From contig JAATGM010000022.1 of NCBI GenBank assembly GCA_015654675.1, positions 1-64,000 on the forward strand: a stretch of 64,000 bases of DNA, in the 5' to 3' direction. The stretch is from Planctomycetota bacterium (GTDB taxonomy: Bacteria; Planctomycetota; Phycisphaerae; UBA1845; UTPLA1). Under the pieces are notes generated by a model. The model worked only from the letters and a program-made list of their open reading frames with translations, was not told the DNA's origin and searched no databases. Both the position numbers and the translations under genes were made by a program. Of this stretch, positions 26,754 to 60,887 are shown one piece after another. Each line of letters starts with the position of its first letter. The first letter of the stretch is position 1.

Positions 26754-27038
26754 AACGGACCCTGCCTCCGCCGGAGGGCCTTCGGGCGAAAACCCTTAGG
26801 GAGGAATCCCGCCGCCTGCTAAATTCAATCAGCGAACGCCCTATAGTGTAGCCGGAGTCGGCCCGCGCGCCACCCAAACTGGCCGACTTCATGCCCAAAA
26901 TTCCGATTTTCGCGTGACATCGCCGCCAAATCTGTCGCACTTCTCGTGAAGTCGGGCCATCCGCCCATTCGGAGGCCGCGTTGCCCGCGCTCCGTGCGGA
27001 CCACTCCTCCGAGTTTGTCATCCTCTGGGAGCTGCTTC

Positions 27039-30000
27039 ATGAAGCGCAACCTCACTCAAGTCACCGTCCTCGCACTGCTTTTGTCCTGCCCCACCTCTGC
27101 CCGCGCCGCCGACGACCACGGCAACACCTGCGCCGCCGCCACGGCCATTACCACCGACGGCACGCCCGCCAGCGTCATCATCGACCCTGTCAACGACGAA
27201 GACTGGCTCAGCTTCCCGGTCGTCGCCGGCCACCGCTACAAAGCCACCACCTTCAACGCCTCTGCCGCCTTCTACTATGACGTCGAAGTCCGCGGTCCCG
27301 ACTGCGTCACCGTCCTCGCCAACTGGAGCTACGGCAGCCCCGACGAGCAAAGCGTCTTCCCCACATCCTCCGGCATCTGCTTTATCCGCATCGCCTCCTA
27401 CGCCAGCGCCTATGTCGGCTTCATCGCCATCGGCATCACCGACGAAGGCCCGCAAGCCGACGACCATAGCGGCAGCCGCGCCAGCGCATCCGCCATCCCC
27501 GCCAACGGCGTCGCCGTCGCCGCCAATGTCGACTACCCCGATGACGTCGACTGGTTCACCTTCGCCGCCGCCGGACAGCATCTCTATCAACTCGAAATCC
27601 GCGCCCTCACCGCGCCCGCGGGCTGGAACGTCGGCGCCGAGTTCTATACCGGCGGCACCAGCGTGGCCTTTACCGGCTACTCCTACTCACCGCCCGGCGG
27701 TCCCGACGGCGACTGGATCTCAGCCCGCTACTACCTCCCCAGCGGCGCCGACGGCCCGCTTCTCGTCCGCGTCTCCGGCTATCCTGGCGAAGCCGGCCCC
27801 TACGAAGTCCGCGTCACCGACCTCGGCGGCTTCCCGGCCGACGACCACGGCGACAACTGCGCCGTCGCCACGCCCATTCTCACCGACGGCTCCGTCAATT
27901 CCGCCGTCATCGAACCGCAAACCGACGAAGACTGGCTCATGTTCACCGCCGACGCCGGCCACCACTACGACCTATCCACCTTCGCCCCCTCCGGAAATTT
28001 TTACACCGTCGTCCAGCTCATCGCCGACGACTGCGCCACCGTCGTCGCCGAATGGGTCCCCAATACGCCCGACGAATACGGCTTCAACACGCCCGCCCCC
28101 GCCACCTACTACCTCCGCATCACCTCCTTCCTCGCGGGCTACATCGGACAGCTCAACCTCGCCGTCACCGATGGCGGCCCGCAGACCGACGACCACAGCG
28201 GCAGCGAATCCGGCGCAACCGCCGCCCCGACTGACGGCACCGTCCTCACCGGCACCATCAACTACCCGCGCGACTACGACTTTTTCACCTTCAACGCCCT
28301 CGCCGACCACCTCTACAGCGTCCAGGTCCGCGCCCTCACCCACACCGACTCCTGGTACGTCTCAACGATTCTCTATCAAGGCCCCTCGGTGCTCGACTTC
28401 AGCGGATCATCCAACGGCAGTCCCGGCGGCCCCGGCCTTTGGACCGGACTCGTCTACGGCGTCCCCGCCGGAGCAGGCGCACCCCTCCACGTCCTCGTCT
28501 ACGCCAGCCCGTCCGACTCCGGCGGCTCCTACGAACTCGCCATCCGCGACCTCGGCCCCACTCCCGCCGACGACCACGGCGATGACGCCGCATCCTCAAC
28601 CCCGCTCCTCACCGACGGCACCCCCGTCGCCGGCGTCCTCGGCCACGGCGGCGACCTCGATTTCTTCCGCTTCACCGCCCTCCCGCAGCGCGTCTACTCA
28701 ATCGAAGTCCGCGCCCTCGACAGCCCCGACTCCGGCCTCGCCGGCGGCTCACTCTATGCCCCCGATGGCCTCTCCTATCTTGGTTTCACCGGCTGGTCCT
28801 CCGCCGGCCCCGGCGTCGACGGCGACTGGTCTCGAGTCCTCTACTACGTCCCCGCCGATGCCGCGGGCGACTACTACGTCTCCGCCGTCGGCTACGGCTT
28901 CACCGCCGGCAACTACAACATCCGCGTCATCCTCGGAATCGGCCTCCCGGGAGACTTCGACGGCGACAAGATCCCTGACGCCACCGACAACTGCCCCACT
29001 GTCCCTAATCCCGACCAGGCCGATACCGACGGCGACGGCATCGGCGACTGCTGCGATCCCGACTCGCCCGACGCCGACGGCGACGGCGTCGCCGACACTT
29101 GCGACAACTGCCCCACCGTCTACAACCCCGACCAGCTCGACTCAGATCACAACGGCGTCGGCGACGCCTGCGTTGGTCTCCCCGGTGACATGAACTGCGA
29201 CGGCGTCGTCGACGTGAATGACATCCCCCTCTTCGTTCACGCACTCCTCGCCCGCACCGGCTTCACCGGCTGCGACATCAACCGCGCCGACATGAACGCC
29301 GACACCCGCATCGACGGCCAGGACATCCAGCCCTTCCTCGCCGCCATCCTCACTTCACCCCCCGCCGACCTCACCTGCGACGACGCCTCCCACTGCCAGC
29401 TCGCCGACCAGCTCGCACATGGAACCAGCGGGTCCTACGCCATCACCTCCGATCGCTCAGCCAACGGCGGCAACGGATTCTGGGTCGCCGAAGACTTCCA
29501 CGTCACCGCCGCCGGCAGCGTTTCCCAACTCTGCTGGACCGGCCTCTATCACAATTTCAGCACCAACACCGATTGCGGCGCCTCCGCAGCCGACGACTTC
29601 CAGGTCACCTACTACAACGCCGACGGCCCCAACGGCCTGCCCGGCACGGTTCGCGCCGGTCCATTCTCACAAAGCGCCGCCACGCTCGCCGTCACGCCGC
29701 GCGAAGCCACCGGCAACACGGTCCTGGCGCACTCCGAATATCGCCACAAGGCATCACACGCACCCGTGGCCGTCTCCGCCGACGAGTGCATCTGGGTCGA
29801 AGTCACCAACGGCGGCAACAATCCGTGCAACTGGATATGGAGCGCCGCGCCGCCCGGTAACGGCAACTCCGTCCAGGACCAGAACGTCGCCCCTGGCCCG
29901 CAATACGCCGCCGCGGCTTCCCACGATTTCGACCTCGCCCTCTGCGTCGGTCCGAGCCCGCTCGAAATCGCCCCCACGAGTTGCCAGCTTCCCCCGCCCC

Positions 30001-48176: not shown

Positions 48177-48602
48177 CTAGTTCCCCAGCAGAGTCGCCAC
48201 GAAGGCAGGCACGTCCTCGACCCCAACCGTGCCGTTGCCGCTCATGTCGGCGCAGGTGCAGTTCGAGCCGTTGACGCCCGTGAGGCAGTTCACGAAGTCC
48301 TGGACGTCCATTCCGTTCCGGTGCGTGTTGAGATCCATGTCGCCGGGAAGTGAGCAGGTCGGCACGGCCGCTACTGCCCAGAACCCGCCGACGACCGAGA
48401 AGGTCCCGCCGCTCATTGGGGCGGCGAACGAACTTGCATCGGGCTGGCCGATGGTTCCGGCCACCGCATAGGTCCCACCCGTGCTCGACATCGCCCCGCC
48501 GCCGTCGATGCTGTGCCAGTCAACCGCATATTGGCTCAACGCGATGGGCCCTGTGGCTATGACGACGAAGGCGGCGAGCGTGATCAATCGAATGCGTGTC
48601 AT
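48177..48602 (-). CDS. Small secreted dockerin-like protein
   Basis: 141 residues, with a GGAGAAG ribosome site before the ATG at 48602. After the signal peptide comes 'YAVDWHSIDGGGAMSSTGG', then 'YAVAGTIGQPD' and 'FSVVGGFWA', a short beta module found in many planctomycete and other exported proteins. It ends in a dockerin-like pair (GDMDLNTHRNGMDVQDF and ADMSGNGTVGVEDVPAF), in which the first loop is degenerate. It lies 33 bp behind the tail-fibre-like gene, so the two are probably co-transcribed. Confidence 0.75.
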   Translation of the reverse strand: MTRIRLITLAAFVVIATGPIALSQYAVDWHSIDGGGAMSSTGGTYAVAGTIGQPDASSFAAPMSGGTFSVVGGFWAVAAVPTCSLPGDMDLNTHRNGMDVQDFVNCLTGVNGSNCTCADMSGNGTVGVEDVPAFVATLLGN

Positions 48603-48635: not shown

Positions 48636-50405
48636 TTAGTTGCTCGACCCGATCGGCTCGCGCGATACCGGCAACTCCGCTGTCCTCGCCACATGAAACT
48701 GACTCTTTTCGGCCGGCTGGCCATACAGCTCAGGCTGCAGATAGGTACCGCGTTTGTCGGCCGGCTTCTCCAATTCCACCGCGGCCCCGTAAGTTCGAAC
48801 GAAGCGATCGTTGCGAACGGCCTCCACGCGCCACGAGACTTCCATGCCGGGCTTGCCGCCCGCCACCAGGAAGCGATTGCCCGCGATCTTCTGCTTCACG
48901 AAGACCGGCGCGAACTCGCCGATGGGCGTGAGCTGATAGGATGAATCGCGATTGATTTCGGCGAAGTAGTCGGGGAGCGTCACCCATGCCTGGCCTGCGG
49001 CATCGAGGGTGACATTGCCGCGATAGACGTTGAGCGGTTCCGGGCCTTCCGCGCAAAAGTGGTTCAGGTACTTGTTTTCCGGGTCGAGCGGATGGTCGAT
49101 TTGAAAGCTCTTCGTGCCGGTCGCCGCGAAGTTTCCGACGCTGTACACGCCTGTGCCTCCGCCCTGGCTATTTCCGCCTGTGATGCCGGTGAAACCGCTG
49201 GAATTGCTCCACCCGGTGACGCCGCCACGATCGCTCTCAAAGTATCCGGCCCGGTTTGTCGCGCCTCCGAAGACTGCAAGTTGTGCATAGGCCGACGGCG
49301 TCGTCGTCCCGACACCCAGCGCACCGTCCGTACCCAGCGTGACGCGTGGACTGGAATTGTTCGTAAAGAGATAGAGCGGGTGATTGCTTCTCGTCCCAAG
49401 CCATCCGCCACTCGAGTTGAGGTAGGATCCGACCTCGCGTGTCCCATCGGTATGAACGAACCCAAATCCTCCCGTGGTCTGGACGGTTAACGGATAAGCG
49501 GGTGTGGTGGTGCCGATGCCCACCTTCGGGCTGGCGTCGTTGGCGTCAAAGGTCGCGACGTTCGTCCCGCCCGAAGCCGTGATCTGGAATTGCTTGAGTC
49601 CGACTGTGGATTGCAGCCGCAGGGCGCTTACTGAACCAGTGCTGCTTTGTTTGAACACCCATGGGCGTTCCGTGCTGAGTCGAAGGAGCTCAGCGCCATC
49701 CCCGGTCGCTGTAACGTCCAGCTTCGATAGCGGCGCCGAGGTGCCGATTCCAACATTTCCGGCGTTGTTCTTGAAAATGTCGCTGCCGCTGGCGGTCCAG
49801 AAACCCGCGCCACCGGTGGGAGCAGTCAACTGCAGCGTGCCATCGGGAAACTTGATGCCATCGACGCCGGGCGTGCCGACGATCTCTAGTTTCGCGGTCG
49901 GCGTTGATGTGCCGATGCCGACGTTGCCGCCGTTGTAGTAGAGATCGGTCCCGGCCGGTACCCACGGCCCGTAGGCATAATCAGCCGTCGTGGCCGATTG
50001 CGCCGTGCTCGACATCTGGCAGTACGGCGTCGAGTTCAGCGCCTGTCGAGGCGACAACGCCGTTCCATTGACGGTGAGCTCAATCCACATCGGCGCGCCG
50101 GTGAAGACGGGGCCATAGTCGAGTTCGCTGGTGAACAAGCCCGCGGTGACAGCCGTGCCGGGCTGGAGGAGCGGACCGGCGACCACGTTCCCGCCGGCCG
50201 GCTGGTCCCAGAGCGAGTAGCTCAAGTTAAAGGTCCCGTTGGCCGGCACGCCGCCGACCTTGAGCTGTCCCTGATAGGTAAATGCCGTGGGCTGGCCAAG
50301 CGACGCCGACGGGCACGCCAAAAGGGCAGCAGTCAAGCAGGTGCCGCACAAGAACTGGTTGAAGCGTCGCGTACGCGCGCCAATAGATTTACGATTCGCA
50401 AACAT
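48636..50405 (-). CDS. Secreted tail-fibre-like protein A
   Basis: 589 residues. It starts MFANRKSIGARTRR, then a signal peptide, then 'AFTYQGQLKVGGVPANGTF' and 'LSYSLWDQPAGGN', the N-terminal beta module shared with protein B (51745-53403). Repeated 'NVGIGTSTPTAKLEI'-type units follow (also GIGTSAPLSKLDV, VGIGTTTPAYPLTV), as in phage tail fibres and trimeric surface fibres. The end is a distinct beta module ('GNVTLDAAGQAWVTLPDYF', 'GNRFLVAGGKPGMEVSWRVE'). A fibrous surface protein is inferred. Strong GGAGAATG site; a conserved leader lies upstream. Confidence 0.8.
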   Translation of the reverse strand: MFANRKSIGARTRRFNQFLCGTCLTAALLACPSASLGQPTAFTYQGQLKVGGVPANGTFNLSYSLWDQPAGGNVVAGPLLQPGTAVTAGLFTSELDYGPVFTGAPMWIELTVNGTALSPRQALNSTPYCQMSSTAQSATTADYAYGPWVPAGTDLYYNGGNVGIGTSTPTAKLEIVGTPGVDGIKFPDGTLQLTAPTGGAGFWTASGSDIFKNNAGNVGIGTSAPLSKLDVTATGDGAELLRLSTERPWVFKQSSTGSVSALRLQSTVGLKQFQITASGGTNVATFDANDASPKVGIGTTTPAYPLTVQTTGGFGFVHTDGTREVGSYLNSSGGWLGTRSNHPLYLFTNNSSPRVTLGTDGALGVGTTTPSAYAQLAVFGGATNRAGYFESDRGGVTGWSNSSGFTGITGGNSQGGGTGVYSVGNFAATGTKSFQIDHPLDPENKYLNHFCAEGPEPLNVYRGNVTLDAAGQAWVTLPDYFAEINRDSSYQLTPIGEFAPVFVKQKIAGNRFLVAGGKPGMEVSWRVEAVRNDRFVRTYGAAVELEKPADKRGTYLQPELYGQPAEKSQFHVARTAELPVSREPIGSSN

Positions 50406-50445
50406 GGGACATTCTCCAGGTTGTTGTCGGTTCCAGGTCTGATGT

Positions 50446-50478
50446 CTGCCGGGCCTTATGCGGCCTCTGATTCGGCAG
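50446..50478 (-). promoter_or_regulatory. Conserved leader hairpin, copy A
   Basis: A 33-nt element 41 bp before the tail-fibre-like gene A. Outer arms on the + strand are CTGCCG and CGGCAG; inner arms GGCC/GGCC. It lies in a stretch of about 120 bp (50401-50525) that aligns with the leader of gene B. It could be an RNA structure in the 5' UTR or an operator. Confidence 0.45.
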
Positions 50479-50677
50479 CGCCATTGAGGTGTGGCGTTAT
50501 TCCAGCGTCGGGGGCGGTCGGCCTGTCACGCGGAAAGAACTCAATTCCTTGAGATTTTCAGCGAAATGGATGCGAAATGGGCTGCCTCACACCTGGCGAG
50601 CGATTCGTCAGGCAGTGCCCGCCATTCCCACTCCGCTGCAGTGCGCTCGTAGCGTCGCCGGGGTGCTGATTTTGGCG

Positions 50678-51712
50678 TCAGCTGCCCAGCGTTACGCCGC
50701 CAATCGGCGCTTTGAGCGTGATCGGCGTGTTGTAGGTCCCGATCGCCGAATACGAGCCGGGTTGGATGAACAGGTTTACCGGCGTCTGGCTGACGGCGCT
50801 GGCGAATGAGATGTTCCACGGCTGCACGAATGTCCCGCTCTGGGGACCGGAGTAGTTGCGGTCGAGGAATCGATCGCCGCCATTGGCGTAGAGCATTGAC
50901 ATGATGAGCTGGTCATAGGTGCTCAGGTGGTCGCGCTGGCCGATGTTGGCCTGCCACGCCGTATCGTTGGGCGGAAGCACCGTGATAGTCTGGCAATTGC
51001 TCGCACAGGCGCACGTGGACCCGGCCGGGCAGCAGATCGAAAACGAACACCCGTCGTATTGCATGACCGAGTCGAAGTCATAGGGGCCGTAGCCATGCGC
51101 CGAGCCCTGCACAGGAAAGTTGTTCAGATAGATCGAGCCGCCCAGGCCGCCCTGAACGTTGTTCGCATTGATGAACAAGTATGAATCGCGGTCCGGCCGC
51201 TGATGCTCGTGAAACAGCCCCAGGCAGTGGCCGAGTTCGTGGGCCACGATGTAGACCGATGTCCAACTCGTGATGTTGATGATTTGCGCCCCGCCGACCA
51301 TTCCCACCGCCGAGTTGTTGGCGGTCGAATCCTGGATGTGGACATAGTTACTCTGATTGAAACGAAGCGAAAAGCTGACGTTGGCCACTGCGACCCACTG
51401 GACCATTGCATTGAGCATGTTGGAACGATTGGCCGCTGAGACGTTTGCATCCCACTCGTAGTACACGACTCCGCCGGTCCAGAGGTTCGTGTTGTAGGTC
51501 ATTCGCTGGGCTGGATCAAAATCGTTCGGCACCTGGATATCGCCGTCGATCAACTTGTATCCCCGAGTGAGATTGTCTTTGGTCCGGTTTGCCCCGGTCA
51601 GGACGGGCTCCTCGGCCCGCGCGAATGTTGCAGCCGACACGATGCATGAGATGGTCAGAAAAACGGCGACGGTCGCCGGACGGGTTCTGGAACTTAGCGA
51701 TTTGAGTCTCAT
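50678..51712 (-). CDS. Secreted astacin-like metalloprotease (M12A)
   Basis: 344 residues, signal peptide to about 33. The zinc signature HELGHCLGLFHEHQRPDRD (about 157-175) is the full astacin HExxHxxGxxHE, and the Met-turn is 'DSVMQYDG' (about 216-222) with a following Cys-rich insertion. The pro-region is short. The C-terminus 'FIQPGSYSAIGTYNTPI' then 'LKAPIGGVTLG' is the beta-helix-like module of many exported proteins, here a single coil. It is 32 bp behind protein B, so the protease and fibre protein are probably co-expressed; the protease may process it (inference). Confidence 0.85.
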   Translation of the reverse strand: MRLKSLSSRTRPATVAVFLTISCIVSAATFARAEEPVLTGANRTKDNLTRGYKLIDGDIQVPNDFDPAQRMTYNTNLWTGGVVYYEWDANVSAANRSNMLNAMVQWVAVANVSFSLRFNQSNYVHIQDSTANNSAVGMVGGAQIINITSWTSVYIVAHELGHCLGLFHEHQRPDRDSYLFINANNVQGGLGGSIYLNNFPVQGSAHGYGPYDFDSVMQYDGCSFSICCPAGSTCACASNCQTITVLPPNDTAWQANIGQRDHLSTYDQLIMSMLYANGGDRFLDRNYSGPQSGTFVQPWNISFASAVSQTPVNLFIQPGSYSAIGTYNTPITLKAPIGGVTLGS

Positions 51713-51744
51713 ATTTTCATCCTCACTTTGTCAGGGATGGGTTG

Positions 51745-53403
51745 CTACTGCATGTTGACCAAGACCAGGACGAGCCCGGTTTGACCGCGCTTCATGGCCG
51801 TCATGGCCTTGCCAATGACCGCTCCACGGGCTTTGTCGAAATCGCCCGCCTTCATGGCATGACCCGTGTGCGATGAGGTCGTGAGCATGTCGCCCGGCTC
51901 GATCGGCGCTGCGGATGCATCGGCGAGGCAATAGACGCGCCCCGTGAGCGCGACCGGATATTGGCCGCTGGCGATGGTGCCTTCGTGGCCCATGGACAGG
52001 CCGGTCGCGACGCCGCCCGCGCCGCTGATGATGCCCGCGACTTTGCGATCGTAGGCTCGGTCACACGGAACCAGTTTTCCAGGATTCAACGGGTCTATTA
52101 CGACGACCATTCCGGGCACGATCTTGTCCCCGCCAACGTCGAAGGGCTCGGCGATATCGGCACCGCCGATGATCTGGAGCGACTTCGTCCGCGTGACGCC
52201 GTTCACATCCAGCGTCGCGACCGGCGTGGTGGTTCCAATGCCCACGCGAGGTGAGGCGTCCAGAGTGTAGAACGTCGCGCAATTTGCACCGCTCGAACAG
52301 GTGATCTCGAAGTTCTTGGCGCCGCTGGTGGAGTAGAGCTGCAATCCGGTGGACGGGCCGCTGTTGATCTGGCGAAAAATCCACGGCCGCTCCGTCGTGA
52401 ACCGCAGCAACTGCGCCAGGGCGCCGCTCGCTGCGATATCCACCTTCGAGGCAGGCGTCGACGTGCCGATGCCGATGTTTCCGCTGTTCGCAAAGCGAAC
52501 GTACATCCCGAAGTTACTGGCGAAATCGATCGATCCCGCCGCGCCGCCGACGTTATTGATGCCGAAAATGCCATCCGAGCCGCCGTCGCAAACGAAGTCG
52601 CCGACGAGCGGATCGAAGATGCGCAGCGATCCGAATGTCGGCGCGCTAATCGAGAGGGTCCCCGCCGGGGCGGTAGTGCCGATGCCCACCCGCGGGCCGG
52701 CGTCATTGCCGACAAATGTGGCGATATTGGTTCCGCCCGCGGCCGTAATCTCGAAGTTCTTGAGGCCCACCGTGGGCTGGAGCCGCAATGCAGTCACCGA
52801 GCCGGTATAGGCCTGGCGGAACATCCATGGACGCTCAGTGCTGAATCGAAGCAGTTCAGTCCCGTCCCCGATCGCCGCAATGTCCAGCTTCGACGCCGGT
52901 GCCGCGGTGCCGATGCCGATGTTGCCGTCGTTGTAATAAAGATCAGCGCCGGAAGGAATCCACGGCCCAAACGCGTAGTTCGCGATGTTCGCGGCCTGCG
53001 AATAGCTCGCAGTCTGGCAATAGGGCGTCGACGTCATCGCCTGCCGCGGCGATAGCGGCGTCCCATTCACGCTCAATTCCAGCCAGCGCGGCGCTCCCGA
53101 AAATACCGCCCCAAAGTCCAGTTCCGCCGTGAACAAACCGTTGGTCACGGCCGATCCCGGCTGATCGAGCGGCCCGGCCACAATATTCCCCGCCGCCGCA
53201 TCGTCCCACAGCGAATAGCTCAAGTCGTAATTGCCATTGGCCGGCACACCGCCGTCCTTCAACTGTCCCTGATAGGTAAATGCCGTGGCCTGAGCCCGCC
53301 CCATTGATGGGAATGCCAGCATAACGGCGCACATGCAGCCGATGCTGATCGATCGCCTGAAGTCTCGTATCCGCGCGATTTGTGTTTCGCGATTAGCAAA
53401 CAT
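51745..53403 (-). CDS. Secreted tail-fibre-like protein B
   Basis: 552 residues from the ATG at 53403 (MFANRETQ, matching protein A); an open extension upstream overlaps the leader and is discarded. N-terminal module 'AFTYQGQLKDGGVPANGNY', then several GIGTAAPASKLDI / GIGTTAPAGTLSI units. The C-terminal domain differs from A: 'GADIAEPFDVGGDKIVPGMV', 'DRKVAGIISGAGGVATG', 'PVALTGRVYCLADASAAPIE' and 'KAGDFDKARGAVIGKAM', a module common at the ends of phage and bacterial fibre proteins. Surface fibre is inferred. It is divergent from an ECF sigma gene 201 bp away. Confidence 0.8.
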   Translation of the reverse strand: MFANRETQIARIRDFRRSISIGCMCAVMLAFPSMGRAQATAFTYQGQLKDGGVPANGNYDLSYSLWDDAAAGNIVAGPLDQPGSAVTNGLFTAELDFGAVFSGAPRWLELSVNGTPLSPRQAMTSTPYCQTASYSQAANIANYAFGPWIPSGADLYYNDGNIGIGTAAPASKLDIAAIGDGTELLRFSTERPWMFRQAYTGSVTALRLQPTVGLKNFEITAAGGTNIATFVGNDAGPRVGIGTTAPAGTLSISAPTFGSLRIFDPLVGDFVCDGGSDGIFGINNVGGAAGSIDFASNFGMYVRFANSGNIGIGTSTPASKVDIAASGALAQLLRFTTERPWIFRQINSGPSTGLQLYSTSGAKNFEITCSSGANCATFYTLDASPRVGIGTTTPVATLDVNGVTRTKSLQIIGGADIAEPFDVGGDKIVPGMVVVIDPLNPGKLVPCDRAYDRKVAGIISGAGGVATGLSMGHEGTIASGQYPVALTGRVYCLADASAAPIEPGDMLTTSSHTGHAMKAGDFDKARGAVIGKAMTAMKRGQTGLVLVLVNMQ

Positions 53404-53442
53404 GTAGCATTCTCCGAATGGGCGTTGGTTCAGGATGGAAAT

Positions 53443-53475
53443 CTGCCTGGCATTTGGCGGCCATCGATTAGGCAG
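53443..53475 (-). promoter_or_regulatory. Conserved leader hairpin, copy B
   Basis: A 33-nt counterpart of 50446-50478: outer arms CTGCCT and AGGCAG. Compared with copy A the innermost base pair of the outer stem is changed from G:C to T:A on both sides at once, and the total length is identical. The aligned flank continues to about 53540, including GTCACGCG. Confidence 0.45.
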
Positions 53476-53604
53476 GGCCATGGAGGTATGGCGAGACCCC
53501 AGCGTCCGCCGCGGTAAGCATGTCACGCGCGGTGGTCATAATTCTGGAGATTGCGGGTACGATGGTGTGGAACTGCGTTAGGACTGTCGCATTGAGGGAG
53601 TGTC

Positions 53605-54228
53605 GTGGACGATTCCGAGGCCCAACTCGCTGAACGTGCCCGCTCGGGCGACGAGAAGGCCCTGGTGCTACTGCTGGAACGCACCGCACTCGAATTGCAG
53701 TCTCAACTTGCAGCGAGAATCGGCGCGAAGTATCGCGGCCTTTTCGACGCCGACGATATCCTCCAAGTCACGTTTCTGGAGGCCTTCCTACGCATTCAAT
53801 CGCTCGTCCCTGGCGGACCGGGGTCTTTCGCCGCGTGGTTGCGGCGTATCGCGGATAACAATCTCCTGGATGCAGTCCGCGAACTGGAACGCGACAAGCG
53901 CCCCTCCCCCGGCAAGCGCGTCGAAATGGCCGGCAACGACCAGTCATATGTCGCGCTGGTCGAACAGCTCGCGGCTACATCCAACACCGCCAGCCGCGCC
54001 TGCGCGACCGAGGAACTGCGGCGAGGCGTGGATACCGCCCTCACGCGATTGCCCGCCGAATACGAGCAGGCCTTGCGCCTCTTCGAGTTAGAGGGCCTTT
54101 CCGGCGAGGAAGTCGCCAAGCGAATGGGCCGCTCACCCGGAGCCGTTCGGATGCTCCTGGCCCGTGCCCGCGAGCGTCTGGCCGAAGTCCTCGGCTCCGA
54201 CTCGCGATTTTTCTCCACAGGCGCGTGA
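53605..54228 (+). CDS. ECF-type RNA polymerase sigma factor
   Basis: 207 residues from a GTG at 53605. Region 2 text: 'YRGLFDADDILQVTFLEAFL' and 'FAAWLRRIADNNLLDAVREL'. Region 4 text: 'LPAEYEQALRLFELEGLSGE' with the helix-turn-helix 'GRSPGAVRMLLARARERL'. The next gene is a Ser/Thr kinase, the usual planctomycete partner, so control by phosphorylation rather than by a classical anti-sigma factor is likely. The divergent fibre-protein gene is a candidate target because both promoters share one 200-bp region. Confidence 0.9.
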   Translation: MDDSEAQLAERARSGDEKALVLLLERTALELQSQLAARIGAKYRGLFDADDILQVTFLEAFLRIQSLVPGGPGSFAAWLRRIADNNLLDAVRELERDKRPSPGKRVEMAGNDQSYVALVEQLAATSNTASRACATEELRRGVDTALTRLPAEYEQALRLFELEGLSGEEVAKRMGRSPGAVRMLLARARERLAEVLGSDSRFFSTGA

Positions 54229-56782
54229 CATCCGCGCGCCGGTTGACGCTCAAGAATTCGAATTGGGCCATCGGGCCTGGTGGCTAGGCCCCTTCCAGGA
54301 GTATGCGGTGATCGACGATGTCGATTCCGGTAATGCGGGTGACGCGCTGCGCGATCGTCATTTGCGCGCGCTGATCTTCGCCGCCCAAAGGGAAGCCGCC
54401 GATGCGAAGTCGCGCGGCGGCGACCTCTCCTGGGGAAGCTCCGCCACCGGCCTGCCGCACGACGCGATCAAGGGCTATGAGCTCCACGGCGAGCTCCACC
54501 GTGGCGGCCAGGGCGTTGTCTATCGCGGCATCCAAAAGTCCACCAATCGAACGGTCGCCATCAAGATGCTGAAGGAAGGCCCGTTCGCGGGCCCGCGCGA
54601 CCGCCTCCGCTTTGAGCGCGAGGCCGGCATCCTTGCCCGGCTCGACCATCGCAACATCGTCGGCATCCTCGACTTCGGCGCCGCGACCGGCGGCCATTAC
54701 ATGGTAATGGACTACATCCCCGGTCTGCCGCTCGATCGCTACGCCCGCGAGCGCCGCCTGTCGCTGGTCGACCGGCTGCGTCTCTTCTCCGAAGTCTGCG
54801 ACGCGGTCAGCGCCGCCCATCAGCGCGGCGTCATCCATCGCGACCTTAAGCCCAGCAATATTCTCGTCGACGAAACAGGCCAGCCGCGCGTCCTCGACTT
54901 CGGACTCGCCAAGGCCCCGGACGACATGCACGATGGCCAGGCGCGCGCCGCAACTGTTACCGGGCAGTTCGTGGGCTCGCTTCCGTGGGCCTCGCCCGAA
55001 CAGGCCCGCGGGCTGCATAGCGAGGTAGACGTTCGCAGCGACGTCTATTCGCTCGGTGTCGTGCTCTATCAACTCCTGACCGATCGCTTCCCCTATTCAA
55101 CAGCCGGCGAGCTCGGACAGATTCTTCACTCGATCCAAAACGCCGAACCGATTCGCCCCCGAACCCTCTCGCCTGAGATTGACGACGACGTCGAATCGAT
55201 CGTCCTCAAGTGTCTGAGCAAGGAGCCGGTTCGCCGCTACCAGTCGGTCGGCGAGTTGTCCCGCGACATCAAGCATTACTTGAACGGCGAGCCCATTGAA
55301 GCCAAGCGCGACAGCGGCTGGTATGTCCTCCGCAAGACTCTCCGCCGCTACCGCATCCGCGTGGGCGTCATTTCTGGCTTTGCGCTGCTAATCATTGCGT
55401 CGGCCATCGCGACGAGCATCCTTTATGCGCGAAGCCGTCACCTTGTCCGCGAACTGGAGGCATCGTCGGCCAAGCTCCGCAGCGAGGCCGCCAAATCCAA
55501 GCAAATCGCGCAGTTTGCCCAAGGGATGCTCAGCGGCATCGACCCCGCAACGGCCGGCGACATGGACAAGCGTCTCATGAAGCTGGTCCTCGACGGGGCC
55601 GCCGCTCAGGCGTCCACCGAGTTCGCCGGCAATCCCGAGGCCGAAGCCGCCATCCGCCGGACGCTTGGGAAGGCCTATCAGGCCATCGGCGAATACCCTG
55701 AATCGCAGACCCATTTCGAGAAGGCGCTGGATCTTCGTCGCCAGACCGTGGGCGAACGCGACCTTGAAACGCTGACGGCCATGGACGATCTCGCCATGAT
55801 CTACAGCGAGAATGGGCGACTTGCCGACGCCGAGAAACTGACGCGCGACGTCCTCGACGCCCGTCGCACGATTCAAGGCCCCGAACACGCCGACACGCTG
55901 CTTACCATGGCCATTCTCGCGGACACGCTCGAGTCCGAAGGCCAGCTCGAAGAGGCCGAGCCGCTTGCCCGCGAGACACTCAATTTGCGCATCCGCGTGC
56001 TCGGGCCGGAGGACTTCGAAACACTGTCGTCGATGAACAATCTGGCGGGAATCATGACCAGACTGCGGAAATATGACGAGGCCGAGGCGATCTTCAAGAA
56101 GGTCATCGAAGCCGAAAAGCGCGTTAAGGGGGAGTTCCACCCCGACCGGCTTCGCACGATGAATAATCTCGCGGCGCTCTACTACAAGAGCGACCGTTTC
56201 GCCGAGGCCGAACCCGCATACCGCGAAGTGCTCGGTCTGATGCAGCGCGTCCTCGGTAACGACCATCCTGATACGCTCCTCATTACGGCCAATCTGGCGG
56301 TTACCCTCCAGGCCAGGGGCGAATTCGACGCGGCCGAGTCGATGTTCAGGGGTCTGATCGAATCGGAACGGCGCGTGCTCGGCCCGAAGCACCCTTCCAT
56401 TGCGAACCAGATGCAGTCGCTGGCGTCCCTGCTTGGCAAAAAGGGTGACTATGTGGCTGCCGAGGCGATGCTGCGAGAAGCCATCGCGATCAATGACGCG
56501 GCCCTCCCCCCCAACCACCCGCAGCGAGTGACCAGCAAGCTTGCACTCGGGGCATGCCTGGCGAAGGAAAATCGGTTCGACGAGGCCGAGACACTGCTCG
56601 TGACCGGGCTGCAGGCGATGAAGGGAAAGCCGGATTTCCACCGCGATTGGCATGACACGTCTGTTAAGACGCTCGTCACCATGTACGAGACGTGGGACGC
56701 GGCCGAGCCGGGAACGGGGAAGGCCGAGAAGGCGGCGGAGTGGCGGTCCGAGTTGCCAACCACGAATCCATCCGCTCCGTGA
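54164..56782 (+). CDS. Ser/Thr protein kinase with transmembrane segment and TPR domain
   Basis: Up to 872 residues. The start is uncertain: the GTG at 54164 overlaps the sigma gene by 65 bp; in-frame TTG (54263) or GTG (54308) also fit. Kinase motifs: glycine loop HRGGQGVVYRG, AIKM Lys, HRDLKPSN, DFGLA, and the APE-equivalent 'SLPWASPEQA'. A TM segment (VGVISGFALLIIASAIATSI) separates it from about nine TPR-like repeats of 42-residue pitch ('NLAALYYKSDRFAEAEPAY', 'TLLITANLAVTLQARGEFD'). The TPR part would be outside the membrane and may sense peptides. It forms a pair with the ECF sigma upstream. Confidence 0.9.
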   Translation: MPASVWPKSSAPTRDFSPQARDIRAPVDAQEFELGHRAWWLGPFQEYAVIDDVDSGNAGDALRDRHLRALIFAAQREAADAKSRGGDLSWGSSATGLPHDAIKGYELHGELHRGGQGVVYRGIQKSTNRTVAIKMLKEGPFAGPRDRLRFEREAGILARLDHRNIVGILDFGAATGGHYMVMDYIPGLPLDRYARERRLSLVDRLRLFSEVCDAVSAAHQRGVIHRDLKPSNILVDETGQPRVLDFGLAKAPDDMHDGQARAATVTGQFVGSLPWASPEQARGLHSEVDVRSDVYSLGVVLYQLLTDRFPYSTAGELGQILHSIQNAEPIRPRTLSPEIDDDVESIVLKCLSKEPVRRYQSVGELSRDIKHYLNGEPIEAKRDSGWYVLRKTLRRYRIRVGVISGFALLIIASAIATSILYARSRHLVRELEASSAKLRSEAAKSKQIAQFAQGMLSGIDPATAGDMDKRLMKLVLDGAAAQASTEFAGNPEAEAAIRRTLGKAYQAIGEYPESQTHFEKALDLRRQTVGERDLETLTAMDDLAMIYSENGRLADAEKLTRDVLDARRTIQGPEHADTLLTMAILADTLESEGQLEEAEPLARETLNLRIRVLGPEDFETLSSMNNLAGIMTRLRKYDEAEAIFKKVIEAEKRVKGEFHPDRLRTMNNLAALYYKSDRFAEAEPAYREVLGLMQRVLGNDHPDTLLITANLAVTLQARGEFDAAESMFRGLIESERRVLGPKHPSIANQMQSLASLLGKKGDYVAAEAMLREAIAINDAALPPNHPQRVTSKLALGACLAKENRFDEAETLLVTGLQAMKGKPDFHRDWHDTSVKTLVTMYETWDAAEPGTGKAEKAAEWRSELPTTNPSAP

Positions 56783-57383: not shown

Positions 57384-59726
57384 TCAGTGGTTTGTCGGAG
57401 TTAGAGCTGGGGCAGTTGTGAGCGGGCGCCAAGGATGTTCGGGGGTGTAGATTTCATCATGAGGCCAGATCGAAGGGCCGGGGGGCATGTACCAGAGTCG
57501 GCGGGGAAGGTCGCCCCAGGTCCAAGCGGATTTGGGGGGGAGCTTCTGTCCATCGCTGTCGGGGAGTTGCTGGTTCACGACATACCCGTCCCCTAGTTCC
57601 GGGCCGAGGATCACGTTGCCGGCAGCGTCAAAGTTCCAACCGAGTGACGTCGGTTGCTTGAGAGCTTGCGTAGTGGCCTCCAGCGTAACCCTCACGATTC
57701 GTGCGGTGTCGAATCGCGGTTTAGGAGGCCCGACGTGCACTCCCAAGATCGTGAATTGGCTTTTGTCGGGTGCCTGGCCGTCGAGCAGCAGGCACTTGTA
57801 CCATGCCGGTACAAGTGCTTCGTTCGTTCGTGCAGGCGCAGGGCCTTCCTGAACGATGTATTGGTCGGATTTGAAGTTGAGGCGGGGTTTAATCGCGAAC
57901 AACACGCGCGCATGCGCGAGTACCGCCGACGAAAGGCCGCGCTGCTCCCACGTTACTTCGCCATTTATTGCCGAGACGACGAGTAGGCGCGGTTCGGCGA
58001 GCCAGTGGAACTGGTGGATGCTGGCGTCGATCCAGACGCGATAGAGGACAATCCCTGATAGGTCGATCACTTCGAGTGCAGTATGTGTGGTGTCTCCCTG
58101 AAAGGCTGCGACCAATTGCGGTCCCGGGAGTTCGGGAAAAACATCGGCGATAATTGCTGTCCGAGCATCAAATTCGCGTCCGACGAAACCGCGATTCTGG
58201 CGGACGGTGGGGGCGATATCTTGCTCCTGGACGGAGACCGTCCATGCCGGCTTTTCCCAATCTTGATCCACATCAAATGCGGCGAGGCCAAGCGGCGATC
58301 CGTATTGAACTTCGTCCGCGTGAAAGCCCAGGACCACCAGCCGGCGGCCACCCAATTCCGGCGGTTGGTTCCGCATGAATGCGCACGGAAAATACTCCAA
58401 ACCCTGGCACTTCCAGTCTTTCAATGTCGCGCCGTTTCGAGCCTTGAGCGTGGCGGTTCTCTTGTCGCCGCTTAACGCGAGCGCTGCCGGGCGTTGATCA
58501 AAGAACCAAATACTGATCTTCGTCGCGGCGATCGTGGCGATGACTAACGCGAGGCAGAGGGCGGCGGTGAGCATGGCCGGATGGCGGGCGGCCCAGCGGG
58601 TGGCGCGGACCCAGGGGGTTGTTGCGCGGGCTTCGATCGGCTCGCCGGCGAGATAGTGGCGGATATCGCGGGCCAAGTCGGCCGCACTGCCGTAACGGCG
58701 CTGCGGGTCTTTCTCGAGTGTCTTCAGGACGATTCGCTCGACGTCACCGCGGAGCTTTCGGTTTACTGCCGAGAGGGCGCGGGGCGGTTGTTCGCGAATC
58801 GTTCGCGTGATCGCGAAAATTGTCTGGCTGGGCGGCTGGTAAGGCATTTGACCGGTCAGCAACTGATAGGTGACTACACCGAGGGCGTAGACATCACTTC
58901 GGGCGTCGAGGCAATGGGGGTCGCCTTCGCACTGCTCGGGGCTCATGTAGGGGAGGGTGCCGACGAGTGACGCCATGCTTGTGTGCTGCAGGGTGATTGA
59001 GACGTCGGCGTCGGTGACGCGAGCGATTCCGAAGTCGATCACTTTCGAGGCACCTTCGCAGTCGATGAGGATGTTGGCCGGCTTCAGATCACGGTGGAGA
59101 ATGGCTTTCTGATGGGCATGCTGGACGGCATCGCATACGCGGGCCATGAGATCGAGTCGCTCGCGCGTTCCGAGATGCTGTTTCTCTACGTAATCCGTGA
59201 TCGGCAGCGCGCCCGGTACAAACTCCATCGCGAAAAACGCGACGGCGGATGCCCCCTCGCCATGCACTCCGGCATCATGTACGGCGGCGATGTTTGGATG
59301 GCGGAGCCGCGCGAGGACCTGCGACTCGAAGCGGAAGCGCTTCATAGCCCAGTCGGACGCGGAGCCGCGATGAAGGATTTTCAGGGCGACCTGGCGTTTG
59401 GGATTGGCTTGTTCTGCGAGATAAACAGTGCCCATTCCGCCGCGGGCGATCAGCGAGTGGATCGTGTAGCGGCCGATACGCTGGCCGATCAGCGGGTCGG
59501 GTCCGGTATCGAGGGCCGACTTGCCCGAGAGAGCGGGATCGGGGGGCGGCGGGCAAAGGAAGTCGGGGGTTGCGGCGTGGTCGTGTTCAAGTAAGGAACG
59601 AACCTCCTTTTGGAGGTCAGGTTCATTTGCACAGGCGTCGGCGAGGAAGCCGTCGCGGAGCGGCGCGTCGAGCGCGGCAGCCTGCGCGAAGAGCGATTCG
59701 ATCTTATCCCAACGATCTGAAGACAT
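57384..59726 (-). CDS. Ser/Thr protein kinase with large C-terminal sensor-like domain
   Basis: 780 residues. An N-terminal planctomycete kinase leader (MSSDRWDKIESLFAQAAAL) is followed by the kinase at about 86-360: ARGGMGTVYLA, 'QVALKIL', HRDLKPANIL, 'VIDFGIA' and 'GTLPYMSPEQ'. A TM segment lies near 385-412 (MLTAALCLALVIATIAA), then about 370 residues of beta-rich text without a family I recognise ('GGRRLVVLGFHADEVQYG', 'LVVSAINGEVTW'), possibly a propeller. The sigma gene lies 21 bp upstream in the same direction. It is convergent with the other kinase. Confidence 0.9.
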   Translation of the reverse strand: MSSDRWDKIESLFAQAAALDAPLRDGFLADACANEPDLQKEVRSLLEHDHAATPDFLCPPPPDPALSGKSALDTGPDPLIGQRIGRYTIHSLIARGGMGTVYLAEQANPKRQVALKILHRGSASDWAMKRFRFESQVLARLRHPNIAAVHDAGVHGEGASAVAFFAMEFVPGALPITDYVEKQHLGTRERLDLMARVCDAVQHAHQKAILHRDLKPANILIDCEGASKVIDFGIARVTDADVSITLQHTSMASLVGTLPYMSPEQCEGDPHCLDARSDVYALGVVTYQLLTGQMPYQPPSQTIFAITRTIREQPPRALSAVNRKLRGDVERIVLKTLEKDPQRRYGSAADLARDIRHYLAGEPIEARATTPWVRATRWAARHPAMLTAALCLALVIATIAATKISIWFFDQRPAALALSGDKRTATLKARNGATLKDWKCQGLEYFPCAFMRNQPPELGGRRLVVLGFHADEVQYGSPLGLAAFDVDQDWEKPAWTVSVQEQDIAPTVRQNRGFVGREFDARTAIIADVFPELPGPQLVAAFQGDTTHTALEVIDLSGIVLYRVWIDASIHQFHWLAEPRLLVVSAINGEVTWEQRGLSSAVLAHARVLFAIKPRLNFKSDQYIVQEGPAPARTNEALVPAWYKCLLLDGQAPDKSQFTILGVHVGPPKPRFDTARIVRVTLEATTQALKQPTSLGWNFDAAGNVILGPELGDGYVVNQQLPDSDGQKLPPKSAWTWGDLPRRLWYMPPGPSIWPHDEIYTPEHPWRPLTTAPALTPTNH

Positions 59727-59747
59727 GTCCAGGCGGTTCAGCAGCGA

Positions 59748-60344
59748 TCAGGCATTGCCGAGCGCGCGATGCAACCAGGCGCGGGCGATCCGCCAACGGT
59801 TGTCAACCGTGCGCGGGGCAACGCCGAGGACCTCGGCGGTCTGGTCGATGTCTAGCCCGGCGAAGAACCGGAGCTGGACCAGCTCGGCCAGATCGGGCTG
59901 CTCCTTTTCAAGCGTAGCGAGAGCCTCCTCTACAGCGAGCAGCTCGACCGGGTCGTCGTCGAAGGCGGCGGGTTCGCCGTTGTCGTCGGAGCGGCACTGC
60001 GAGCGGGCCGCCCCCCCGTGGGCCGGTCCGCCGCGTTTGAGCCGCCCTCGTCTACGTGCGTCGTCTATGCGGATCTGACGCATCGCGCGGGCGGCGGCGG
60101 CAAAAAAATGGCGGCGGTTTTCGAAGTGGCCGTTGCCGGCGGCGGCACAGAGGCGGAAGTAGGCCTCGTGGACGAGGGCGGTGGGCTGGAGGGTACGGCC
60201 GGGTGATTCGAGGGCCATCTGATCGGCGGCCATTTGGCGGAGTTCTTGGTAGACGAGGTTCCAGAGTTGCTGGCGAGCGGCCACGTCGCCGGAGGCGATG
60301 TGGCTGAGGATTTTGGTGATAGCGTTTGAGTCGCGTGTGTGCAT
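59748..60344 (-). CDS. ECF-type sigma factor (TIGR02999-like)
   Basis: 198 residues from the ATG at 60344; an ATG at 60383 is an alternative, and an open frame runs further. Family text: 'LWNLVYQELRQMAADQMALE' and 'LQPTALVHEAYFRL' (region 2), 'HFFAAAARAMRQIRIDDARR', and region 4 'LAELVQLRFFAGLDIDQTAE' and 'GVAPRTVDNRWRIARAWLH'. This is the sigma class that expanded in planctomycetes. Co-directional with the kinase 21 bp downstream. It belongs to a different subgroup from the sigma at 53605. Confidence 0.9.
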   Translation of the reverse strand: MHTRDSNAITKILSHIASGDVAARQQLWNLVYQELRQMAADQMALESPGRTLQPTALVHEAYFRLCAAAGNGHFENRRHFFAAAARAMRQIRIDDARRRGRLKRGGPAHGGAARSQCRSDDNGEPAAFDDDPVELLAVEEALATLEKEQPDLAELVQLRFFAGLDIDQTAEVLGVAPRTVDNRWRIARAWLHRALGNA

Positions 60345-60887
60345 GGCTCGCACCGAGGTGTAACCGGCGAAAGACTCTTTCATGATATCGCGTTGCGGAT
60401 GGTGTTGGAAGGGGAAACTGTCGGCAGGGATAAGGGGCGAGGGCCGTCCGTCGCGACGCGACTTGGAGGGGAATTCTCGTGCGCTCTTGCGTGGGGTGTG
60501 ACGCATGGCTCGATGGAACGCCGATCGGCGCGGGAACGCAAGCAGGTTCAGGATAGTTCGAGCTGCAGCAATCGGGAATTTGTGTCTAGTTGGTGGCCCT
60601 TGTGGGCCATGGGAAACAAGCGCGTCGGGTAGCCGGGCAAGCACCGGTTATTAGCGTTCATCGTCGACACAAAATGGCAGGAGTACGCGGCAGGATGGAT
60701 CTGGCTGTACAGGCCAAGAGCCCGGACGCCTGCGCCGGAATGTGAATGAAATCTCAACTAACCCGGAAATATCAGCGAAGACTGGATCGGACTATTCGAC
60801 TATTTCGAGGAGATATGTCGCGGAACACGGCTCGGTGGCGTAGCCGGGCGAGGTTAATTGGAAAGTGTCACTCTGGAGGATCTACGA
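60345..60887. other. Divergent spacer, no gene seen
   Basis: About 540 bp between the sigma gene and the Kelch-type gene. Frames here look like shadows. The right end carries the Kelch gene's ribosome site. I see no strong repeat or hairpin. Confidence 0.4.

What the first reader, a model, noticed from the sequence alone, without database searches (positions are those of the whole stretch)
50401..53545. Shared 120-bp leader with a co-varying 33-nt hairpin before two fibre-protein genes
The regions upstream of 50405 and 53403 align over about 120 bp. Each contains a 33-nt element with 6-bp outer arms. One closing pair is G:C in copy A (CTGCCG/CGGCAG) and T:A in copy B (CTGCCT/AGGCAG), a compensatory change with identical total length. 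This suggests a structured 5' UTR or operator that co-regulates two surface-fibre units.
Basis: seen in the sequence. Interest (0 to 1): 0.55.

Follow-up and report, generated by a model that had tools for sequence, protein, structure and literature searches.

The report
Shared sigma-factor promoter before secreted-protein genes
The matching stretch in front of the two genes is best explained as a binding site for a neighbouring kinase-linked sigma factor that switches on secreted proteins and its own kinase, while the small hairpin that caught the eye is found in this one genome only and its role is unproven.

Summary
In detail: the leaders of the two YQGQL genes (starts 50405 and 53403, minus strand) align, and both carry the 33-nt element with one compensatory G:C/T:A change. 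The conserved core is not the hairpin. It is a two-box promoter, CGCGTGACA-N14-GACGC, lying upstream of it. A motif learned only from other genomes (CGCGTGAAT-N14-ATCGCAT) occurs on the divergent strand before homologues of the neighbouring ECF sigma gene (53605-54228), with no hit on the sigma strand. A second copy sits at the sigma/kinase junction, where the sigma gene's TGA stop forms part of the -35 box. In this genome CGCGTGACA-N14-RWCGC occurs five times, each 26-100 nt before a start codon: three YQGQL genes, a TSP3/dockerin secreted protein, and the kinase. The sigma's clade (98/98 support) shares the GTGAC variant. The hairpin is in none of 113 other genomes of the order, is absent from the third YQGQL leader with this promoter, and has one compensated pair against two broken ones. 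Its sequence is nevertheless better conserved than synonymous sites, so a lineage-specific UTR role remains possible. Co-regulation is supported; the hairpin as its agent is not. All functional claims are computational.

The parts
50505..50532 (-). Promoter A: -35-like CGCGTGACA (50532-50524), N14, -10-like GACGC (50509-50505)
   Evidence: same motif and spacing as in relatives
53502..53529 (-). Promoter B: CGCGTGACA-N14-GACGC, in the divergent ECF/YQGQL intergenic region
54222..54249 (+). Junction promoter: CGCGTGACA-N14-GACGC; the ECF stop TGA (54226-54228) is inside the -35 box
26911..26938 (+). Further site CGCGTGACA-N14-GTCGC, 100 nt before ATG 27039 of a secreted-looking TSP3/dockerin protein
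50446..50478 (-). 33-nt hairpin element A (CTGCCG...CGGCAG), in the presumed 5' UTR
53443..53475 (-). 33-nt hairpin element B (CTGCCT...AGGCAG)
50479..50496 (-). Small hairpin 1, A (CGCCA...TGGCG)
53476..53493 (-). Small hairpin 1, B (outer C:G pair lost)
48636..50405 (-). YQGQL gene A, 589 aa, signal-peptide-like N-terminus (by eye)
   Evidence: no family match
51745..53403 (-). YQGQL gene B, 552 aa from ATG 53403
50678..51712 (-). Astacin-family metalloprotease gene between A and B
   Evidence: PF01400, E 1.6e-32
53605..54228 (+). ECF sigma factor gene, divergent to gene B
54308..56782 (+). Ser/Thr kinase with TPR repeats; GTG start at 54308 with AGGAG before it is inferred
48177..48602 (-). 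Small secreted-looking ORF conserved in related modules

Best explanation
The shared leader is the promoter and early 5' UTR of genes read by the neighbouring ECF sigma factor. RNA polymerase carrying this sigma recognises CGCGTGACA (-35) and, 14 nt further on, GACGC (-10). It starts transcription a few nucleotides on (inferred), giving a leader of about 94 nt that contains the hairpins. The same sigma would drive both YQGQL genes, a third YQGQL gene and a TSP3/dockerin protein elsewhere in the genome, and its own partner kinase from a promoter whose -35 box contains the sigma gene's stop codon. Shown by computation: motif, spacing, strand, position, recurrence next to this sigma subfamily, and a -35 variant that marks the sigma's clade. 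Inferred: that this sigma binds it, that the kinase activates the sigma, that the genes are co-induced, and where transcription starts. The hairpins are a lineage-specific 5' UTR feature, conserved as sequence, perhaps for mRNA stability or translation; that is a guess.
For: De novo motif from 27 ECF intergenic regions with the own genome left out: CGCGTGAAT-N14-ATCGCAT, 14-nt spacing in 83%. Regex hits: 12 of 25 nearest ECF regions on the divergent strand, 0 of 25 on the sigma strand, shuffles mean 0.14, and 1 of 25 before more distant ECFs. Held-out families: 7 of 40 divergent, 0 of 40 reverse; the four closest orthologues (54-61% identity) all have GCGTGAC[AC]-N14-[AG][TA]CGC. Junction, not used in training: 13 of 40 held-out loci match the regex, all at the stop codon, 0 of 40 reverse, and the best PWM position is exactly at the stop in 18 of 40, out of about 230 positions each; in the family set 12 of 30 match, 10 of them at the stop. 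Own genome: five CGCGTGACA-N14-RWCGC sites, all 26-100 nt before a start codon, four of them on the window's 69-kb contig. The window ECF lies in a 98/98-supported clade of six; all six have GTGAC before the divergent gene and five of six at the junction stop, the sixth 5 nt downstream. Module synteny in L299: small ORF, astacin, two YQGQL, ECF, kinase.
Against: No transcript, binding or knockout data. With the relatives' matrix, A and B score only 10.4 bits and rank 15-16 in the window, because this clade uses GTGACA/GACGC. Many ECF homologues lack the strict motif: 33 of 40 held-out divergent regions and 27 of 40 junctions. The regex was written after seeing some family sequences, so the in-family counts are not independent. 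GTGAC also occurs in three ECF rows outside the clade. Genome-wide counts of a looser motif exceed the reversed-pattern control (17 family genomes: 150 versus 31, summed by hand), but a genome with hardly any of these ECFs shows it too (G002, 11 versus 1), so that excess is uninformative. Five other YQGQL genes of this genome show no convincing site.
Confidence: 0.8

Rival explanations
1. The 33-nt hairpin is the regulator: a structured 5' UTR or operator that co-regulates both genes.
For: Conserved above synonymous sites; one compensated pair; changes depleted in paired columns, p=0.018; copy A folds well.
Against: Absent from 113 other genomes of the order and from the third promoter-bearing YQGQL gene L062; two pairs broken in B; B does not prefer this fold in the 66-nt piece; no Rfam match; leaders of 28 promoter-bearing genes show only a mean fold z of -0.68.
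Confidence: 0.12
2. The leader is merely a relic of the duplication that produced the two genes, with no function beyond ordinary promoter needs.
For: A and B are paralogues and the similarity stops outside the leader and genes.
Against: Four-fold sites are near saturation (44%) while leader blocks stay at 70-81%; the promoter block recurs at other genes and genomes.
Confidence: 0.08
3. The two-box motif is real but is read by another sigma or by an activator, not by the adjacent ECF.
For: No binding data; GTGAC occurs in three ECF rows outside the clade.
Against: The motif lies next to this ECF subfamily, hardly before more distant ECFs; the -35 variant follows the ECF clade; two-box layout with fixed spacing.
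Confidence: 0.12

Closest known systems
ECF sigma factors linked to Ser/Thr kinases (ECF43 and planctomycete groups ECF59, ECF61, ECF62, ECF217; PMC8999054 and PMC8103513, passages read)
   Same: ECF gene directly followed by a Ser/Thr kinase gene, in Planctomycetota.
   Different: The passages read give no promoter motif for the planctomycete groups. The window sigma keeps an acidic DADD at the place where ECF43 has a non-charged phosphorylated stretch (motif placed by eye), and no group could be assigned.
Ordinary ECF-type promoters (-35/-10 boxes with fixed spacing; recalled)
   Same: Two short boxes with a near-constant spacer upstream of target genes.
   Different: Boxes here are CGTGAM/RWCGC, and the kinase promoter uses the sigma gene's own stop codon in its -35 box.
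TIGR02984 Sig-70_plancto1 (NCBIfam)
   Same: Best NCBIfam hit of the sigma (E 4.9e-34).
   Different: 117.5 bits, below the 183.75 cut-off, so not a member by that test.

Membership tests
ECF sigma factor (sigma2 + sigma4 only) | Sigma-70 regions 2 and 4 in a short protein | tested here: met
   PF04542 and PF08281 above cut-off in 207 aa
Kinase-linked ECF module | Ser/Thr kinase gene directly downstream on the same strand | tested here: met
   kinase on the same strand in the relatives so marked
Kinase-linked ECF module | Kinase phosphorylates and activates the ECF | not testable with these tools
   needs biochemistry
ECF43 | No acidic DAED motif in region 2.2 | tested here: not met
   window ECF reads DADD there (sequence; motif described in passages; placed by eye)
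Sig-70_plancto1 (TIGR02984) | Score above curated cut-off | tested here: not met
   117.5 versus 183.75 bits
Target promoter of this ECF | Same two-box motif upstream of the regulated genes and beside orthologous ECF genes | tested here: met
Target promoter of this ECF | Transcription start just downstream; loss on ECF deletion | not testable with these tools
   no expression data
Conserved cis-regulatory RNA | Covariation across independent genomes or an Rfam match | tested here: not met
Fibre protein | Match to a known fibre family or solved structure | tested here: not met
   (sequence only; PDB search with protein B only; no fold predicted)

The most novel reading that the evidence does not exclude
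Planctomycetota genomes carry several parallel sigma/kinase circuits in which each sigma drives its own kinase from a promoter that uses the sigma gene's stop codon as part of the -35 box, plus a divergent secreted protein. The -35 letters change with the sigma clade so that the circuits stay insulated, and in this genome a 56-nt double-hairpin leader adds a second, RNA-level layer.
Probability: 0.3. Interest if true: 0.65.

Novelty: new variant of a known kind. Interest (0 to 1): 0.5.

Why it matters
Kinase-linked ECF modules are frequent in this group (9 ECF matches at E<=1e-20 in this genome), and the passages seen here give no target promoter for the planctomycete ones. A concrete promoter, shared by the kinase gene and by secreted-protein genes, lets their regulons be predicted from sequence and tested, and suggests a positive feedback loop (sigma makes its activator) controlling the cell surface. 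It also shows how a compensatory change between two paralogous leaders can be over-read.

Tried and rejected
Rfam at gathering threshold on the window and a permissive scan of the region: only a chance plant snoRNA hit. Own-genome DNA search with leader B: only short chance matches, and it did not even recover A. Covariance model R1 on 114 genomes and on the own genome: only A and B stand out. Idea that all leaders with this promoter are structured: mean fold z -0.68 over 28 of 31 leaders tried, 9 below -1; for L062, L068 and L295 the script found no start, so they were left out. Idea that leader B is coding (an ORF runs through it): set aside because the two leaders differ by a 1-nt gap. Genome-wide counts of the looser motif against a reversed control: excess not specific to genomes with this ECF. 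Literature: searches returned no paper whose title or shown abstract reports a promoter for kinase-linked planctomycete ECFs; only passages of PMC8103513, PMC8999054 and PMC11032199 were read; the main ECF reclassification paper (its DOI recalled) is not held. A statement that the promoter is new therefore rests on these searches alone.

Full report
What was claimed.

Check of the observation. The alignment and the element are exactly as described. The leaders are old paralogues: over 186 aligned codons the genes agree at 66% of nucleotides, 47% at third positions and 44% at four-fold sites (29 of 66), close to the 32% expected at saturation. Against that, the block CGCGTGACA...GACGCTGG agrees at 25 of 31, hairpin 1 at 16 of 23 and the 33-nt element at 25 of 33, then the spacer drops to 15 of 28. 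So the leader is constrained. As structure the case is thin: 15 pairs, of which 12 never vary, one is compensated and two are broken in B. Slid controls score worse, but the structure was derived from these sequences. Under random placement of the 15 substitutions, 13 or more pairs survive in 2.5% and all six outer pairs in 5.4% of trials. Copy B does not favour the fold in the 66-nt piece.

Following the hairpin outward. A covariance model of the 56-nt region was run on 114 genomes of the order. A and B score 81 and 78 bits; the best other is 23.9 bits, and 12 of 113 others reach a per-genome E of 0.1, which is chance. In the own genome the next hits have E above 5. Rfam has nothing.

Following the other half of the leader. 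The own paralogue at G000:C1 about 112 kb (61% identical N-terminus) carries CGCGTGACA-N14-GACGC with only 26 nt from the end of the motif to its start codon and no hairpin. Gene B is divergent to an ECF sigma gene followed by a Ser/Thr kinase gene. I collected the regions upstream of 50 ECF homologues in family genomes. A de novo two-box search on 27 of them, own genome excluded, gave CGCGTGAAT-N14-ATCGCAT, reading away from the sigma gene. The regex count is 12 of 25 nearest ECFs versus 0 of 25 on the sigma strand and 1 of 25 before distant ECFs; shuffles give 0.14 on average for the nearest 25. The regex was framed after looking at family sequences, so I tested it on 40 ECF homologues from other families of the order, picked from the upper part of the list (not all of that list): 7 of 40 on the divergent strand, 0 of 40 reverse, and paired PWM scores higher on the divergent strand (p=0.003). 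The four closest orthologues (54-61% identity) all match, with the same GTGAC variant as the window; three of the four have a divergent YQG gene.

A second, independent site. In the window a further copy lies at 54222-54249, overlapping the ECF stop: the TGA at 54226-54228 is inside CGCGTGACA. The kinase then most likely starts at GTG 54308 after AGGAG (inferred). The same happens in relatives: among 30 family loci 12 match the regex at the junction, 10 at the stop codon; among the 40 held-out loci 13 match, all at the stop, 0 of 40 on the reverse strand, and the best matrix position is exactly there in 18 of 40. By eye, several non-matching junctions show the two boxes one nucleotide closer together; these were not counted.

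Regulon in this genome. The search CGTGACMN{13,14}RWCGC gives 23 sites against 15 for the reversed control. Of these, five have the full CGCGTGACA with N14, and all five lie 26-100 nt before a start codon: YQGQL genes A and B, the C1 YQGQL gene, the protein at 27039 (TSP3 repeats and dockerin) and the kinase. Four of the five are on the 69-kb contig of the window. Five other YQGQL genes of the genome show no convincing site.

Link to this sigma. In a tree of 66 ECFs the window sigma and its five nearest relatives form a clade with 98/98 support. All six have GTGAC at the divergent site and five of six at the junction stop, the sixth having GAGTGACA 5 nt downstream. Neighbouring clades use mostly GTGAA. 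GTGAC also turns up in three rows outside the clade (L099, L340, L343), which weakens the rule. The module is syntenic in L299 (same order, another family): small ORF, astacin, two YQGQL genes, ECF, kinase.

Mechanism. Most likely the sigma, presumably activated by its kinase as in the ECF43 cases described in passages of PMC8999054 and PMC8103513, transcribes secreted-protein genes and its own kinase; no such site reads into the sigma gene itself (0 of 25 and 0 of 40). The hairpins would sit in the leader transcript. Kinase activation, sigma binding and co-induction are inferred.

What remains open. The sequence of the hairpin block is conserved beyond neutral expectation between A and B, so it may have a lineage-specific role; with two sequences this cannot be settled. 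The YQGQL proteins have no Pfam or NCBIfam match and protein B has no PDB sequence match, so 'fibre' is a guess; secretion is judged from their N-termini by eye.

Noticed in passing
window 53501-53530 and 54221-54250: A 30-nt inverted repeat 690 nt apart (I1) is simply the two opposite-facing copies of the promoter, before gene B and before the kinase.
   Followed up: yes
window 57384-60644 (minus): A second kinase-like gene preceded by a sigma-like gene, apparently another ECF/kinase pair of a different type; read from the ORF list only.
   Followed up: no
window 48177-48602 (minus): Small secreted-looking ORF, matched at 39-47% identity in the related loci L134, L136 and L299.
   Followed up: partly
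L092 (G012:C42, upstream of its YQGQL gene): Its presumed leader has a perfect TGCCGG-GGAA-CCGGCA hairpin and the lowest fold z of 28 leaders (-3.73); unrelated in sequence to A and B.
   Followed up: partly
L090 (G011:C33): The divergent gene behind the promoter begins with a stretch (DDHGDTCAAATAIATDGT) closely resembling the window protein at 27039, which carries the same promoter here although it is not next to the sigma gene.
   Followed up: no
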